In this document: in pieces, positions 32,890 to 63,625 of the stretch
Position numbering within the stretch: the stretch's first letter is position 1
Layout: the number at the start of each line of letters is the position of its first letter
Source of the DNA: Chlorella sorokiniana
Taxonomy: Eukaryota > Chlorophyta > Trebouxiophyceae > Chlorellales > Chlorellaceae
DNA: 64,000 bases
Assembly: GCA_025917655.1 (NCBI GenBank)
Contig: CP084610.1
Coordinates: 1,674,001 to 1,738,000 of the forward strand
Direction of reading: 5' to 3'
Made by a program: the position numbers and the translations under genes
Notes under the pieces: generated by a model
Told to the model about the DNA's origin: nothing
Seen by the model: only the letters and a program-made list of their open reading frames with translations
The model's database searches: none

Positions 32890-38668
<5,779 letters not shown>

Positions 38669-43900: not shown

Positions 43901-46117
43901 CAGCGAGGACGAGATCCAGTTCATCCTGGATGCCATCGCCGACTACCTCACGGTCAAGGTGGGCGGCAGGGAGGTGTGGCTGTGAAGGAAGGTGCTTGCA
44001 TGTTCGGGCAAATCACCTTACATTGGCAGCATACAATGCATGACGGGGCGGTTGTAAAGGTTGGTGGGGGCCACGCTGCGCCTTTGCTGCTCCCTCTTCC
44101 CGGCTGCTGCCGCGCCGGCCCAGCGGAACCCCGATGCTGCAGCGGCACGCGGGCGTTGCCTTCCTGCAGCAGGCATGCAGCATGGGAAATCAGCGCTGCT
44201 GGCCCCGGTTCCTGTAGGTGCGGCGCAGCGACGTGCAGTCGGCCTGGAGCGGCATCCGGCCGTTGGCGCTCGACCCGAACGCGACGGGTGCGCCCACATC
44301 GTTTGGTTGACGCTTTCCAGCCGTGCCGAGGCTTTGGTTTGCCGGCACAGCGTATTAATTGCAGCCGCCATGCTGCATCCTCCTCTGCCCGCGCCCTGCC
44401 CGCTCCACCCTGCCCACCCCCGTCCTGGTGGCCCGCAGCCGTGAGACTGCTGCACAGCCCCCGCCCTGCCCGCTGTGCCTGCTGTGCAGACACGGCCAGC
44501 GCTTCGCGCGACCACATTGTCACAGTGGACCCTGATGGCCTCATCACAGTGACAGGTGCTGTGCCAAGAGGGGGTGCGGAGTTGGGAGGGGTTGGCGGCC
44601 CGCACTCAACTTGACCTCTTATGTCGCGGACAGCCATGGCCGCACAGCGGCGGGCTGCGGGGGTCGCCGGCACCTCTCCATGCACCCAAGCTGCGCCTGT
44701 CCCCAACGCCGCGTGTCCACCCAGCTCACTGTACTGCCTCCTGCAGGCGGCAAGTGGACCACGTACCGCCTGATGGCACAGGACGCCATCGACCGAGCGG
44801 TGGCGGAGGGGCGCCTGCCGGCCCAGCCCTGCTCCACCGCGCACCTCAAGCTCATTGGCTCAGGTGCCTGATGTGCCTGCTGCGCTGGCGGGGGCGACGC
44901 CGGAGGACAGCTGTGCAGGCCAGGCCAGGCTGCCCTGGACTTACTTTCGGCACGAGGGCGCCATCTTCCCGCACACATGCTTTCCCACCTCACTCAGTCG
45001 GCGCTCGCGCCCGCCGTGCTGCCCCCTGCTGACTCGTACTGCGATCGTACCGCCTGCAGACGGCTACCACCCCGCCCTGTTCACCGAGGTGGCGCAGAAT
45101 TACGTGGTGCCGCACCGCCCGGGCGCCATCGACACGCACGTCGCCAAGTACCTCGTGGGCGAGTGGCAGCCGGTGTTGATGCCTGCTCCAGCGACCGCCC
45201 CGCCCCTGGAGGCTGGGGCGGCTTGCCTGGCAAGAACGTCACGCGCCCCCTTCCGTCCCGCCACCCACCCACCGCCCGCGCACATGTCCTGCCACCCATG
45301 AGCCCTCCCCCGCTCCCCCGGCAGCGTCTTACGGCGACCGCGCCGCCGAGGTCACGCGCATCGCGGAGCAGCGCAAGCTGGGGCGGCGCATCGTGCGGGG
45401 CTACCCCATCCTGGAGGCGGAGGTGGTGTATGCAGGTATGTGTGTGTGGTGTGGTGGTGTGGTGGTGGTGGGGGGGGACGCGCAGCAGGGGCCCGGGGGC
45501 CAGCACGCTAAGGCAAGGCTCTGAGATTGTGGTTGGGGGTGGCGTGCGGGGGAAGATGCGCTGCAGCAGCCTGCGTGAGTTACAGGTATCATGCACCCTC
45601 ACTCCTCCCTCTCGAGATTCTTGCCTTCTTCCTCTCCAACCTGTGCCCTCTCCTCGATGCGCTGGTTCCCCATCATACGCACCCACCCACCCACCCGCCC
45701 ACCCAGTGCATCACGAGTACTGCGAGACCCCGGAGGACTTCATCGCCCGCCGCACCCGCCTCGCCTTCCTGGACAAGCTGGCCTGCGAGCAGGCGCTGCC
45801 CAAGGTGGGCTGGGCACGCGGGTGCTGTGCGAGGGCAACTGGCGCTGGTGCCGCGGGGAGCGCTCATCCTGAACATCGCTGCTGTTGGGGCTGGCAACTG
45901 TGCCGGGCCAGGAGACCTCGGCCCCGTGCTTGCTCCGCATGCACACACGTACGCCTTGCCGGCGTGATCCCGTCTCCCCCAACCCTCCCCGCGGTCACAG
46001 GTCGTGGAGCTGATGGCGGCGGAGAAGGGGTGGAGCCGGCGGCGCGCGGCTCAGGAGCTGCAGCGCGCCCTGCGCTTCCTCGCCACCTTTGGCGCACCGC
46101 CGGCACCGCCGCAGTGA
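40918..46117 (+). CDS. FAD-dependent glycerol-3-phosphate dehydrogenase, mitochondrial (SDP6-like)
   Basis: Oxidises glycerol 3-phosphate to dihydroxyacetone phosphate and passes electrons to ubiquinone at the inner mitochondrial membrane. The start [19 protein letters not shown] resembles a targeting and anchor segment. Exons: 40918-41115 ([11 protein letters not shown]-binding), 41269-41313 ([13 protein letters not shown]), 41400-41499 ([19 protein letters not shown]), 41713-41826 ([20 protein letters not shown]), about 42172-42281, 42421-42598 ([17 protein letters not shown]), 42856-42984 ([16 protein letters not shown]), about 43168-43243 ([12 protein letters not shown]), 43512-43628 ([20 protein letters not shown]), 43900-43959, about 44218-44290 ([12 protein letters not shown]), 44489-44556, 44746-44868 ([16 protein letters not shown]), 45060-45154, 45324-45435, 45707-45804 and 46001-46117. 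C run 41015-41019 and G run 43200-43203 are each one base short. No EF-hands are present, as in plant forms. Confidence 0.92.
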
Positions 46118-58300: not shown

Positions 58301-61300
58301 GGCACCGGCAGTGCAGGCAGCAGCGCAGGGGAGGATGCATTTCAGCGGCCCACTCAGCCCTTGCTCCCCCTTGCTGGCTGCCCTGGCCTCCGCTGCAGGG
58401 ATCTTGAAGGAAATCGGCTGTGCGGCTCTGTGCCTATCGGCCTTCTACCCATGTGCTACAGCACGGACAGCTTCAGCTGCCCAACAGGCGGCGCTTGCCC
58501 GCCGCCGCCGGCGTTCACCTCCCCGCCGCCCCCGCCAGGCGAGTGGAGCCTGCTTTGGGAAGGCAGCCACAACTCGTTGATCTGGCATCCTTGTGGCTCG
58601 GCCGTTCTGCCTCCTGCCAGCAAGCCGTGTGGTTCGCTCCTGCTCCCCTTGCTGCTGGCGTGCAGGCAGCGACCCCACGCCAGCCCCCGCCCCCGACGCC
58701 AGCTCTTCCTCTACTGTGGGCATCATTGTGGGCTCGGTGGTTGGGGGCCTAGGTGAGCCCGGGCCGGCTGAGGCTGATGCCCTGCTGCTGGGCCATGCCA
58801 GCCGCAGGCAACCGTGACCGGGAGCGGCTGCGGGCCTGCAGCTAGCAAGGGCCCTAGCACCGCTTTGAGTGAACCGCCTGCTTGCGCATCTCCCGCTCTG
58901 CAGCGGCGGTTGCGCTCCTCGTTGCCTTTGCCGTGTGGCGGGGCAGGAGCTCGCTGCGGCGTCCCGTGGCGGCGCCGCCGCCGCCGCCTGGCAAGGGTGA
59001 CTTGAGAGCAATCTGAGCGACGAGGCCATCATCGTGGTCGGCCAGCAAAGCGGCACCGACCGCCCTCGCCAAGTGACGGCGGCCTGGGCGGCGGGGGCTT
59101 GCCGACGCTGGCGCGGGATTCGACGCTCGCTGAGCTGGCAGCGGATTTCGGAAAGCGCAGGCAAGCGGGTCCACGCAGGGTTGCCACGCTCTGCTGTCCC
59201 AGGCCTGCTTGTAGGCTGTGCATGTGTGCATCTCGCTTTTCTCAGTCAGCAAGTGGATTGAGTGCTGCGCCTCGCTGGCGTTTCGAGCTGCAGCGCCGAC
59301 CTGGAAAACGACCCCGTGATCAGCTTCCTCAGCAGCCACCTGGCCACCCTGCGCGGCGCCTCGCTGGCCCGCCACGCAGCCCGCGCTTCGCCCGCTGGGC
59401 CAGGCGTCGGCGACGGCAGCAGGGGGGGGGGTGCCACTCTGGCGCCCGAGGTGCGGCAGTGGGAGGTGCAGTGGGGTGACATCACAATCGTGCGCCCGAT
59501 TGGCCGCGGCTCCTTTGGCAGGGTGAGCGGGGGTGGCTGGCTGGCCCGGGCTCTGTGCCCGCCCGCGCACAGGCCTCAGCTTGCTCCGCCTTGCGTCGCT
59601 GCCCTGACAACCCTCCAGCAAGCTGGCAAAGACGTTTCCCTGCCGATGAGCATCCTGCCACGGTGTGCACATAGGGTGCTTGTTTCGACCGCGCTGCGCA
59701 CGCTGCCCCCTGCCTGCCTGCAGGTCTACCTGGCCTCCTGGCGGCAGACGCCTGTGGCTGTCAAGGTGCTGACCAGCTCAGACTCCGACTCGGGTGGGTG
59801 GCGGCTGCTGCGCTTGCTGCGGCACTCCTCCGGCTGGGCTGCTGTCCTCCCTTGGCAGCTGCCCTGCTGTTTCTTCTTTCAGCCTCAGCCTGAATCTGTT
59901 CTTGCTGTCCCGTCTTGCCTGCACCTGTCGTCTAATGTTCCGGTTTCATGTCGCGATGGAGAATGCAGGGGAGCTGCGAGAAGAGGACTTCATCCTGCCC
60001 GAGGGGGTGGTGCGGGAGCTGCAGGAGGTGAGGAGGCACCCCTGCCCTGCAGGCCATGCCTCGACCGCCTCATGGCCGCTTTCGCCCCTCGGCGCCCCCT
60101 GCCCTGCCCGTCACGTCTGGTGAATGCGCGCTGCCACGCGTGCATGCCACGCATCGCCGCCGACTGCCCATCTCTGCTGTGCGCCGCGCCGCCGAAGGAG
60201 GCGACTGTCATGACCAGGATGCGCCACCCCAGCATCGTCTCCTTCATGGGCCTCTGCCTCATGCCGCCGCTGATCGTGACGGGTGCGTGCAGCTCGCTGC
60301 TGGCCGTCGGCCGTGCGGTCCGCGCTTGCTGGCTTGCGCTTCTGGCTGCCCTGCCGGCGCCTCGCCCGTGGCCCTGTCCTCACCTGGCGGCTCTGCCTGT
60401 GGCTGGCAACCGCGCAAACCTCACCAGCCTGAGACTCTGACGCCCCCCGTGCCCCGCGCTGCCCCGACCGCTGGTCAGAGTTCTGCGGCAGGGGCTCGCT
60501 GTACGACGTGCTGCTGCGGGCCGCGCGCCTGCCCGAGGCTGCGGCCCAGCTGGGATGGGCGCGGCGGCTGCACATGGCGCTGGATGCGGCGAGGGGCCTG
60601 CTGTACCTGCACCGCCACTCGCCGCCCATCATCCACCGCGACGTCAAGAGCCCCAACTTGTTAGTGGACCAGCACTGGAGGGTCAAGGTGGGTGGGGGCA
60701 GCGTACATTGCACGTGTTGGTGCGTCAGTGCGTGGGGCTTGCGAGAAGGGGGGTGTCTCGTGTGTGGGTGGTGGTGGTGGGGTGGGTGGGGGGTGGGGGT
60801 GGGGGTGGGGGCGCTGCCGTTGATGTGCTTCAGTGTGACTATAGCTGGGGGGATGTGGCGGCGCGGAATGCATGCAACATCAGCTGTTCAAGATGCGTGG
60901 GGCCTGCGGCAGCCTGCGTCTGTCTTTGTGGCACACCTCACCCTGCCCCCAGCCTGCCCCTCCTGCCCCTCCACAGGTGGCAGACTTCAATCTCTCAAAG
61001 ATTTTCGGCGCCGCCAACGAGACGGACGGCCCCAGCAACCCCATGTGGCTGGCCCCGGAGGTGGCCCTGGAGGATGCTGAGGCCACCGAGGCCAGCGACG
61101 TGTACAGCTTCGCCCTGGTACTGTACGAGCTGCTGACGTGGCAGCTGCCCTGGGAGGGCCGCGGCCCCATACAGGTGGGGCGGCACAGGGGGCTTGAGGG
61201 CACGGCAGCTGCCGCCGGGCGTTGGTTCACCAGTCCCCTGTGCCAGCTGTGCCGCCTGGGCTGCGGTCCGGATCAGCCGCTGCCGCCGCTTTCCCCTCCC

Positions 61301-61660
61301 GCTGCTGAGTTGCACCGGCATTGTGGGTGGATCAAGCGCTCCTCTGGTTTGAATTGCTGGCGCTCGTGCTGTCTGCAGATTTCATACAGCCTGCAGCAGG
61401 GGTTGCGGCCGGAGGTCCCGCCTCGTATTGCACTGCCCGGCCCCGACACGCTCGCCTTTGCGGGGCTGGACTCGTACTGCCAGCTGATGCGGGACTGCTG
61501 GGCGCAGCGCCCCGCTGACCGCCCCACCTTTGAGGCCATCATCCCCCGGCTGGGTCGTCTTCTGGAGGGCCTGGCACGGGCCAGCAGCGGCGCCGCTGGC
61601 CGCCCGCCGCACCGCAGCACCAGCGGCGCCGTGGGCATCGACGCCGGCTGTGCCCCGTGA
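55374..61660 (+). CDS. LRR receptor-like protein kinase (TKL/Raf-like kinase domain)
   Basis: Signal peptide MRAAAFTAALVIAALPSTLC (exon 1, 55374-55452), then a plant-style LRR N-cap ending VCDWTGIECLGGS (55568-55749). LRRs follow, largely one per phase-1 exon, each starting G(T/P)LPxxW and ending LTG: about 55867, 56180-56261, 56403-56489, 56660-56741, 56939-57018, 57198-57268, 57516-57687 (two), 57929-58051 and 58400-58539. A Pro-rich hinge and a transmembrane helix (VGIIVGSVVGGLG plus AAVALLVAFAVWR, 58667-58753 and 58903 on) lead to the kinase: GRGSFGRVYLASW, VAVKVL, MTRMRHPSIVSFMGLC, IHRDVKSPNLLVDQHW (60476-60687), ADFNLSK with DFN replacing DFG, WLAPEV and RDCWAQRPADRPTF. Stop at 61658-61660. 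G or C runs at 56423, 57613 and 58004 are one base short. Extracellular ligand sensing is inferred from the architecture. Confidence 0.85.
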
Positions 61661-62234
61661 AGCGGTGGGACACCGCGCCCATCAAGATGGAGGGCCGCTG
61701 ACACCGCTGCTTCTGCTGCGCTGTCAATGTTGCCGTGCCCGCTCTCAGCATTGCGCTCGATCCTGTCAGACTGCGAACGTCCGGACGGAAGATGCGGCAC
61801 GACCAGCAGAGCGTGCGCAGCGGGGCGGCAGCAAGTTCAGTGGCTGATGGTGTCCTGTCAGCCCAGCCTGATGTTCAAAGGGGACAGCTTGAATGCGCAG
61901 TGGCAACAAAGCTTTACAGCGACTCGCGGCGCAGACGCCATCATTGCAACGATTAACCCATGGGATGGAAAGGACGGGTGCTTCGGCGGTCTGTGCAGGC
62001 GCGGGTTTGTGTGCAGTTCGTTTGACATCAGGCGAATGAACGACAATACTAAATATGTGCAGAAACAAGACAATGGAGAGAATCCCGACCGATCGTAGAT
62101 GCGTAGTACGAGACGAGGTTCACCCCGAGGCGCGGGGCATAGCGTTCACACCAAGGGCGCCGTGCGTGTTGCAGGCGCCCCTGGAGTCAAGCCAGGCTGG
62201 CTGTGGATTGAAGGGTTTCAGAGGGTGAATGCGT
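61661..62234. other. Convergent 3' flanking region
   Basis: About 575 bases between the kinase stop and the stop of the repeat-precursor gene on the other strand. Less GC-rich around 61900-62060. No gene is recognised; it should hold both 3' untranslated regions. Confidence 0.4.
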
Positions 62235-63046
62235 TTACATCTGCAGCGGCTCCTCCATGCCGTACGGGGTGCCCTCGGGGCTGCAGCACAGGTGGGCGGG
62301 AGGGGCGGTCGGCAAAGCGCCGCCAGCACTCAAAGCAATGAAAGGGGGACGGCACAGCAGCGGCCTGGTGCCCACACGCGCCCGGCTCCCACCCACCTGG
62401 GCCGGGGCCTCAGCCTGCTGCAGGCGGCGCATCTGCAGCGGCTCCTCCATGCCATACGGGGTGCCCTCGGGGGCTGCAGCACAGGTGGGCGGGGGGCGCT
62501 CAGCAAGGCGGCCGCAGCACTCAAAGCAATGAAAGGGGACGGCATCGCAGCGGCCTGGTGCCCTCACCCGCCCGGCTCCCACCCACCTGGGCCGGGGCCT
62601 CAGCCTGCTGCAGGCGGCGCATCTGCAGCGGCTCCTCCATGCCGTACGGGGTGCCCTCGGGGCTGCAGCACAGGTGGGCAAAGGGGGCGCTGAGCGAGTT
62701 GGCAGCAGCACTGGAAAGCAGGGCAGGGGTGAAAACATCGCAGCGGCCTGGTGCCCACACGCGCCCGGCTCCCACCCACCTGGGCCGGGGGCCTCAGCCT
62801 GCTGCAGGCGGCGCATCTGCAGCGGCTCCTCCATGCCGTACGGGGTGCTCTCGGGGCTGCAGCACAGGTGGGCAAGGGGGCTGAGCGAGTTGGCAGCAGC
62901 ACTGGAAAGCAGGGCAGGGGTGAAAACATCGCAGCGGCCTGGTGCCCACACCCGCCCAGCTCCCACCCACCTGGGCCGGGGCCTCAGCCTGCTGCAGGCG
63001 GCGCATCTGCAGCGGCTCCTCCATGCCGTACGGGGTGCCCTCGGGG
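62235..63046 (-). repeat. Tandem array, about 190-bp units, five copies
   Basis: Each unit consists of the 76-77 bp coding repeat plus its intron of about 110 bp, and both parts are conserved between copies. On the plus strand the units begin near 62238, 62430, 62620, 62814 and 63004; the last continues only as far as 63046. Two intron types are visible: copies one and two share ACTCAAAGCAATGAAAG, while copies three and four share GCACTGGAAAGCAGGG and GGTGAAAACATCGC. This indicates stepwise, fairly recent duplication. Confidence 0.95.
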
Positions 63047-63625
63047 CTGCAAAGCGGCCAGATGGCCGGGCAAGGCAGCAGGGCGGCTCCTGTCGGCGCC
63101 GGGAGGTGTGGCGCCCGACAGCGCCTGGCGATAGTTGAGCATGCATGTGGGCCTCGAATGCAGCTCCGCAAGGTTCAAGCACCGCTGCCCGCCACCCACC
63201 TGGGCCAGGGGCCTCAGCCTGTAGAAGCTTACGGGCGTCACCAGTGGCGCTCAGCACCAGCAGCGCGACGGCCAACCCAGCAATGCGTGGGCCCTGCAGC
63301 AGAGGAGTGCGAGTCGGAATAAAGGCAGCACGCGAAAGATTATTGCGGCAAGACAGGCGGAGCAGGTGGTGGGCAGACCAAATATTCCTGGCTGATTCAA
63401 GCCCCTTGAAGCCGCCCCCGCAGCTGCCGCCCCTGCTTGGCTCCCCGTCTGACGGCGACCAGACGCCGCGGTTCCGAGATTCTCAACGCCAGAAAGGTCA
63501 AGCATACCGGAAAACACAGGCAGCAGCCTAATCAAACGCGAGAGCCGGGGGCACTAGGGCATGGGGGAAATGCCGGAGCGCCGCTTTTGCAGCACACTTG
63601 TCTACAAGAGCTCACCTTCATCATT
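62235..63625 (-). CDS. Secreted tandem-repeat precursor with dibasic sites (candidate peptide prohormone-like gene)
   Basis: Not recognised as a known family. A mini-exon (63625-63617) encodes MMK with a GTGAGC donor. It joins in phase to GPRIAGLAVALLVLSATGDA, together a clean signal peptide, then RKLLQAEAPGPG (exon 63294 to about 63207). Four near-identical exons follow (63046-62971, 62856-62780, 62662-62587, 62473-62397), each encoding APEGTPYGMEEPLQM, then RRLQQAEAPGPG. A terminal exon (62280-62235) encodes the first half again and stops (TAA) right after PLQM. The exons are 76-77 nt as given. Two C runs vary among copies (CCCC/CCCCC at the start, GCCCCGG/GCCCCCGG at the end); with both longer forms the exon is 78 nt and phase-symmetric, so the repeat would read through. 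An RK or RR pair precedes every LxQAEAPGPG unit. The alternative frame (Arg/Cys-rich) is also open but does not match the N-terminal exon. Confidence 0.6.

What the first reader, a model, noticed from the sequence alone, without database searches (positions are those of the whole stretch)
62235..63625. Candidate kexin-type repeat peptide precursor in a green alga
Seen: a signal peptide, then KLLQAEAPGPG, then four tandem copies of an exon encoding APEGTPYGMEEPLQM plus RRLQQAEAPGPG, and a terminal copy that stops right after PLQM. Every LxQAEAPGPG unit is preceded by RK or RR, so cleavage at dibasic sites would free about five nearly identical peptides of about 25 residues. Known: this layout (signal peptide, repeats, dibasic spacers) is shared by yeast alpha-factor, fungal Kex2-processed repeat proteins and animal neuropeptide precursors. 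Inference: this may be an undescribed algal peptide signal or surface-peptide precursor. Caveat: short basic-plus-LLQ stretches just after signal peptides also occur in ordinary secreted algal proteins, and the repeat frame depends on C-run lengths that differ among copies.
Basis: partly seen in the sequence, partly recalled or inferred. Interest (0 to 1): 0.88.

Follow-up and report, generated by a model that had tools for sequence, protein, structure and literature searches.

The report
Algal gene for five repeated peptides
A stretch of what is probably green-algal DNA looks like a real gene for a secreted protein made of five nearly identical 24-residue peptides joined by cutting sites, as in yeast mating pheromone and neuropeptide precursors, although the assembled sequence has run-length faults and nothing yet shows that the peptides are made.

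Summary
The array is real: five copies in about 0.8 kb on the minus strand (62235-63046), behind a signal-peptide-like exon (63293-63200). Three tests favour a genuine coding exon. Its PEGTPYGMEEPLQMRRLQQAEAP frame scores like the window's conserved genes (+12.8 bits; held-out coding median 10.6); other frames score -0.8 or less. Its donors are in the top 0.1% of GT sites. Exons carry substitutions at 2 of 78 columns, introns at 28 of 117 (P=2.5e-5).

The four internal exons are 76-77 nt, and no literal model tried keeps more than 3 of 5 copies in frame. Seven of nine C-runs would have to be one base longer. That is credible here: gyrB in the same window breaks frame inside conserved exons at three places, and G/C runs pile up at length five.

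With runs of five the product is 153 aa: a 23-aa signal peptide, RK, then five 24-aa peptides separated by RR, with no other basic residue after the signal peptide. Processing, expression and function are inferred. No amidation site precedes the RR pairs. By layout, a new member of a known kind.

The parts
63616..63624 (-). proposed exon 1 (ATGATGAAG, M-M-K), donor AAG|GTGAGC
   Evidence: sequence; donor score 10.3, top 1.0% of plus-strand GT sites of the window
63294..63615 (-). intron 1 (322 nt)
   Evidence: GT..AG; acceptor score 13.4, printed as top 0.0% of AG sites
63200..63293 (-). exon 2: hydrophobic signal-peptide core IAGLAVALLVLSA, then GDA-RK-LLQAEAPGP, ending phase 1
   Evidence: 12-residue hydropathy up to 2.69; codon score is low in this exon (-7.3 bits)
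62971..63046 (-). repeat exon A, 76 nt, PEGTPYGMEEPLQM-RR-LQQAEAP
62780..62856 (-). repeat exon B, 77 nt, G to S variant (PESTPYGM); its 3' C-run has the frame-keeping length of five
62587..62662 (-). repeat exon C, 76 nt, identical to A
   Evidence: 0 differences from A in the exon; 17 substitutions and 7 gap columns in the following intron
62397..62473 (-). repeat exon D, 77 nt; its 5' C-run has the frame-keeping length of five; synonymous TAC to TAT
62235..62280 (-). terminal exon E: PEGTPYGMEEPLQM then TAA in place of the RR codons
   Evidence: similarity to the other copies ends at the stop codon
61914..61918 (-). TGTAA, a possible poly(A) signal for this gene (signal recalled for green algae, not tested)
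   Evidence: another TGTAA overlaps the stop codon at 62239
62229..63140 (+). antisense rival: ATG 62229 plus about 60-nt exons (AAHLQRLLHAVRGALGAAAQ) with good splice sites; judged spurious
   Evidence: codon score -8.0 bits for the 60-nt exon and -0.8 for the same frame over copy A, within the range of antisense of real exons

Best explanation
The locus is a functional, intron-rich gene for a secreted polyprotein. Shown: a tandem array of exons that vary far less than their introns, with a coding-like frame and strong splice sites. Inferred: the two C-runs bounding each internal exon, and the one opening the terminal exon, are truly five long, so each internal exon is 78 nt and symmetrical (phase 1-1) and the product is 153 aa. 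The signal peptide (about 23 aa, cut after GDA) sends it into the secretory pathway. A subtilisin/kexin-like protease cuts after RK and after the four RR pairs, and a carboxypeptidase trims the basic residues. Five acidic, proline-bearing 24-residue peptides are released: LLQAEAPGPAPEGTPYGMEEPLQM once, LQQAEAPGPAPEGTPYGMEEPLQM three times and its G-to-S variant once. They most likely act outside the cell, as a signal or a surface/defence peptide. Copy number grew by unequal exchange of the exon-intron unit. The founding fused exon joins the end of the terminal exon to the part of exon 2 that begins at the dibasic site.
For: Frame: copy A scores +12.8 bits over 25 codons with GC3 24/25; 122 pieces of GPDH-like, kinase and gyrB exons scored with the gene itself left out have a median of 10.6 (12.9 when not left out); the other five frames run from -25.3 to -0.8. 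Splice sites: the exon 2 donor and four repeat donors 11.5 bits (top 0.1% of plus-strand GT sites; the 9-mer occurs 7 times among 2874 GT on the minus strand), repeat acceptors 7.4-7.7 (top 4-5%), exon 2 acceptor 13.4 (model from 29 donors and 30 acceptors of this window). Constraint: substitutions at 2/78 exon columns and 28/117 intron columns, Fisher P=2.5e-5; A and C exons identical while their introns differ at 17 sites plus 7 gap columns; the only 2 exon gap columns lie in the C-runs. Dibasic kept: exon 2 CGT AAG and repeat CGC CGC differ at 4 of 6 bases yet both encode a basic pair. Layout: cutting at RK/RR gives a 23-aa signal peptide and five 24-aa pieces with no other basic residue after the signal peptide. 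Run-length faults in the same contig: gyrB frame breaks inside conserved exons; G/C runs of 5 number 263 against 179.8 +/- 12.7 simulated, and of 6 number 30 against 53.9 +/- 7.8. Each C-run position has one copy of the frame-keeping length (B at 3', D at 5'), and exon 2 has CCCCT at the homologous place.
Against: As assembled the frame is broken: seven of nine runs must be lengthened, and literal joining gives a 131-aa mixed-frame product. Runs of five are not depleted in this window, they are in excess, so the general artefact seems to affect runs of six or more; the array would need a context-specific undercall repeated in identical sequence. The simulation is imperfect: runs of three are also fewer than simulated (1736 against 1929.5 +/- 44.1). 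Exon 2 has poor codon scores. The first 45 nt of the introns are also little varied (6/45, P=0.05 against the exon), so the low variation does not end sharply at the exon edge. No relative was found, but the collections searched hold viruses and prokaryotes, not algae. No transcript, no peptide, no SignalP run; the signal peptide rests on hydropathy only.
Confidence: 0.6

Rival explanations
1. Same gene, but the product is not cut: an acidic, proline-bearing repeat polypeptide of the wall or matrix in which RR pairs are just part of the repeat.
For: Convertase-type sites are near universal in algal signal-peptide proteins (756 of 771; PMC6313938). Exon-unit expansion is common in secreted repeat proteins (recalled).
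Against: All basic residues after the signal peptide sit in the five pairs. RK and RR are kept although 4 of 6 bases differ. The last unit ends with a stop exactly where RR stands in the others.
Confidence: 0.17
2. Run lengths are as assembled: the array is a recently frame-broken gene, or a gene whose literal splicing yields a short mixed-frame protein.
For: Exon lengths 76/77/76/77. Runs of five are callable elsewhere in the window (263 of them), and two of the nine runs here are called as five.
Against: Exons are otherwise almost invariant while introns drifted, which a broken gene would not show unless the break is very recent. The same contig has frame breaks in gyrB. Alternative donors at +4 are weak (0.3-2.6 bits against 11.5) and still rescue at most 3 of 5 copies.
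Confidence: 0.15
3. The coding strand is plus: ATG 62229 and about 60-nt exons encoding an amphipathic repeat AAHLQRLLHAVRGALGAAAQ.
For: Donors 11.0 bits and acceptors 10.3 bits, both top 0.9%. Its first four exons are 63, 61, 60 and 60 nt, so only the D copy breaks the frame.
Against: Codon score -8.0 bits over 20 codons with GC3 13/20 for the exon, and -0.8 for the same frame over all of copy A; codon-aligned antisense of real exons has a median of -9.6 (95th percentile 0.0), coding 12.9 (held-out -9.1, 0.9 and 10.6). As assembled the frame is lost in the second exon.
Confidence: 0.05
4. A non-coding minisatellite whose exon-like appearance is accidental.
For: No homologue, and no family above a curated cut-off.
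Against: Codon score, splice sites and low exon variation together.
Confidence: 0.03

Closest known systems
Fungal KEX2-processed repeat proteins (KEPs) and dikaritin precursors
   Same: Signal peptide followed by several short cores separated by dibasic pairs (definition from passages of PMC9769878).
   Different: Probably a plastid-bearing alga, not a fungus; an intron at every repeat; no homology tested; cleavage not shown; layout complete only in the run-adjusted model.
Chlamydomonas amidated peptide precursors (proGATI = Cre03.g204500, Cre12.g487700, which carries repeat sequences, Cre17.g722300)
   Same: Green-algal secreted precursors with paired basic sites; proGATI is cut by the subtilisin VLE1 (passages of PMC10886904, and of PMC6919629).
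   Different: proGATI is large (nominally 91 kDa) and amidated at a -GRRR site (passages); here the residue before RR is Met, the C-terminus is Met, and the precursor is 153 aa of almost pure repeat.
Yeast alpha-factor and animal neuropeptide precursors (recalled)
   Same: Multiple copies of one peptide released from a secreted precursor at basic pairs.
   Different: Not compared by sequence here; no long pro-region in the model; spacers are RR alone.

Membership tests
KEX2-processed repeat proteins (KEPs) | N-terminal signal peptide | tested here: inconclusive
   Hydrophobic stretch up to 2.69 over 12 residues with GDA before RK; no SignalP; exon 1 of 9 nt is a proposal
KEX2-processed repeat proteins (KEPs) | Several similar cores flanked by dibasic pairs | tested here: inconclusive
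   Met in the run-adjusted model (five 24-aa cores, RK + 4 RR); not met with literal run lengths (at most 3 of 5 copies in frame in 162 models)
KEX2-processed repeat proteins (KEPs) | Cleavage by a kexin-type protease | not testable with these tools
   No genome held for the window, no peptidomics
KEX2-processed repeat proteins (KEPs) | Fungal origin | not tested
   Intron-rich, 67% GC window with a gyrB gene suggests a plastid-bearing alga, but the species was not identified
PAM-amidated algal peptide precursors | Gly before basic residues or at the C-terminus | tested here: not met
   PLQM precedes every RR and the stop; the RK pair after the signal peptide follows Ala
Any Pfam or NCBIfam family | Match above curated cut-off | tested here: not met
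   Run-adjusted protein: best Pfam SAM_NCD1, E 0.00091, 19.6 bits against cut-off 24.3, over 12 residues; best NCBIfam 12.7 bits against 86; literal 346-aa ORF no Pfam match at E up to 1

The most novel reading that the evidence does not exclude
A multi-copy, non-amidated peptide signal in an alga: a precursor that is almost nothing but five copies of one 24-residue peptide, expanded exon by exon, showing that alpha-factor-like polyprotein precursors arose independently in the algal lineage.
Probability: 0.3. Interest if true: 0.75.

Novelty: new member of a known kind. Interest (0 to 1): 0.52.

Why it matters
The algal peptide precursor that I found best described in the papers seen (proGATI) is large and amidated. 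A compact precursor with one symmetrical exon per peptide would give a simple, searchable signature (variable numbers of a phase 1-1, 78-nt exon) and a synthetic 24-mer that can be tested at once. It is also a warning: in an assembly like this one such genes would be hidden from annotation by run-length faults.

Tried and rejected
Literal splice models with two donor choices and all subsets of exons A-D: 162 tried, 24 end in PLQM, none has more than 3 in-frame copies; other GT sites further into the introns were listed there but not modelled. Antisense gene model: good splice sites but antisense-like codons. Unspliced 415-codon open stretch (62235-63482): only the 9th longest in the window, so no evidence of a gene by itself. 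An alternative run assignment (5' runs of four true, 3' runs of six, exon 2 one base longer) would also give 78-nt exons but needs more changes; worked out by hand, not excluded. Relatives in viral and prokaryote collections: none (in one search two stretches matched a pattern and neither was confirmed), as expected for an algal gene. Solved structures: none at E up to 10. RNA families at gathering score and tRNAs in the window: none. Paper searches: the string LLQAEAPGPG 0 papers; RRLLQ with signal peptide and alga 0; Kex2 with repeat, precursor, green alga, signal peptide, tandem 0; Chlorella with peptide hormone, precursor, subtilase 0; green alga with peptide precursor and dibasic 2 papers, seen as listings only.

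Full report
What is there. On the minus strand between 63624 and 62235 lies a proposed start exon (ATGATGAAG|GTGAGC), a 94-nt exon encoding GPRIAGLAVALLVLSATGDARKLLQAEAPGP, four copies of a 76-77 nt exon and a terminal copy that ends PLQM-TAA. A 24-base core occurs five times without mismatch, and 100 shuffles held no match even with 3 mismatches allowed. Copies are 189-194 nt apart (from the coordinates). The repeat unit includes the intron, so the array arose by duplication of an exon-intron unit.

Exons A-D are 76, 77, 76 and 77 nt. Exon 2 ends one base into a codon. Joined with the strong donors, the frame alternates between an Arg/Cys-rich frame (A, C) and the peptide frame (B) and stops in D after 131 residues. 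Over 162 models with two donor choices and any subset of A-D, no model has more than 3 of 5 copies in frame. If the C-run that opens each copy and the one near the end of each internal copy are five long, all four internal exons are 78 nt and the protein is 153 aa: 23-aa signal peptide, RK, and five 24-aa peptides separated by RR. That needs seven of nine runs to be one base longer than assembled.

Is the exon coding, and in which frame? I trained codon usage on 1308 codons from conserved exons of this window: a glycerol-3-phosphate dehydrogenase-like gene (Pfam DAO_C), a kinase and gyrB (tblastn). The minus-strand PEGTPYGM frame of copy A scores +12.8 bits with GC3 24/25. 122 overlapping coding pieces of the same length have a median of 12.9 when scored with their own training set and 10.6 when the gene they come from is left out (5th percentile -2.4). 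5000 random open 25-codon windows have a median of -13.3, and 1.06% of them reach 12.8. The other five frames of copy A score from -25.3 to -0.8. Exon 2 scores -7.3, so the codon test does not support it; its support comes from splice sites and hydropathy.

Splice sites. A model from 29 donors and 30 acceptors of the same three genes puts the exon 2 and repeat donors at 11.5 bits (top 0.1% of plus-strand GT sites; the same 9-mer occurs 7 times among 2874 GT on the minus strand) and the repeat acceptors at 7.4-7.7 (top 4-5%), the exon 2 acceptor at 13.4. The plus-strand rival also has good sites (11.0 and 10.3), so splice sites alone do not choose the strand. Codon usage does: the rival exon scores -8.0, and its frame over all of copy A -0.8; antisense of real exons has a median of -9.6 and a 95th percentile of 0.0 (held out -9.1 and 0.9).

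Constraint. Among copies A-D, 2 of 78 exon columns carry a substitution against 28 of 117 intron columns (Fisher P=2.5e-5). Two further exon columns carry gaps, both in the C-runs. A and C are identical in the exon and differ at 17 sites plus 7 gap columns in the intron. The first 45 intron bases are intermediate (6/45, P=0.05 against the exon; the rest of the intron 22/72), so constraint or homogenisation spills over the exon edge. Of the two exon substitutions one is synonymous and one is G to S. Exon 2 and the repeat encode RK and RR with codons that differ at 4 of 6 bases, which suggests that the basic pair itself is kept.

Can the run lengths be trusted? Not well. In gyrB of this window (minus, about 38.2-32.9 kb) the frame changes inside conserved exons; 9 bacterial GyrB proteins served as yardsticks. 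At HAGGKF (37528), 8 of 9 match on both sides in different frames with no room for an intron (the ninth, L071, gave one piece in one frame); the run there is G5. Between 37103 and 37055, 5 of 9 match on both sides in different frames at E<1, some weakly. At the KLYKNNE...[10 protein letters not shown] exon (34279-34177), 4 of 9 match on both sides in different frames at E<1, with G4 where five would keep the frame; one (L060) aligned through in a single frame (E 0.034) and L044 in the other. A fourth, near 33750, is suggested only by an alternative frame reading. Runs of G or C number 263 at length five (simulated 179.8 +/- 12.7) and 30 at length six (53.9 +/- 7.8); but runs of three are also off (1736 against 1929.5 +/- 44.1), so the simulation is rough. 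In one MinION assembly study deletion errors were most numerous after stretches of four to five equal bases, A/T more than G/C (PMC12007338, passages); that this assembly is nanopore is my inference. Against this reading, runs of five are in excess here, not missing, and the three kinase exons that I joined show no break. In the GPDH-like gene each of 14 exons is open in one frame, with one phase mismatch between two exons as I bounded them. I therefore hold the run-adjusted model as likely, not shown.

How it would work. Signal peptide entry, cutting after RK/RR by a subtilisin-type convertase, trimming, release of five 24-mers. Chlamydomonas has such convertases and uses VLE1 on proGATI (PMC6313938 abstract and sections 3.1 and 3.2 read; PMC10886904 passages). 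Amidation is not expected for the five peptides as read, since Met stands before every RR and at the end. Whether the peptide signals, defends or coats the surface is open.

Place among known things. Fungal KEPs share the layout (PMC9769878 passages). Chlamydomonas precursors share the probable lineage, and one (Cre12.g487700) carries repeat sequences (PMC10886904 figure-legend passage). No family match passes a curated cut-off. I file it as a new member of a known kind, and only by layout. The species is unknown: no genome is held, and 'green alga' rests on base composition, introns and a gyrB gene.

Noticed in passing
window 37604-37463, 37180-37011, 34279-34177 (minus): gyrB changes reading frame inside conserved exons at three places (HAGGKF; between 37103 and 37055; before [10 protein letters not shown]), most simply assembly run-length faults.
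   Followed up: yes
window 1-64000: G/C runs of five are in excess (263 against about 180 simulated) and runs of six depleted (30 against about 54), a sign of run-length compression in the assembly.
   Followed up: yes
window 45060-45435 (+): Glycerol-3-phosphate dehydrogenase-like gene: the exons at 45060-45172 and 45325-45435 do not agree in phase as I bounded them; possibly another run-length fault or a different donor.
   Followed up: partly
window 59262-61660 (+): Protein kinase gene (PF07714) running towards the peptide gene; no TGTAA on the plus strand after 58000.
   Followed up: no
window 62229-62291 (+): The plus strand of the array opens with ATG and reads as an amphipathic repeat with good splice sites; judged an antisense by-product.
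   Followed up: yes
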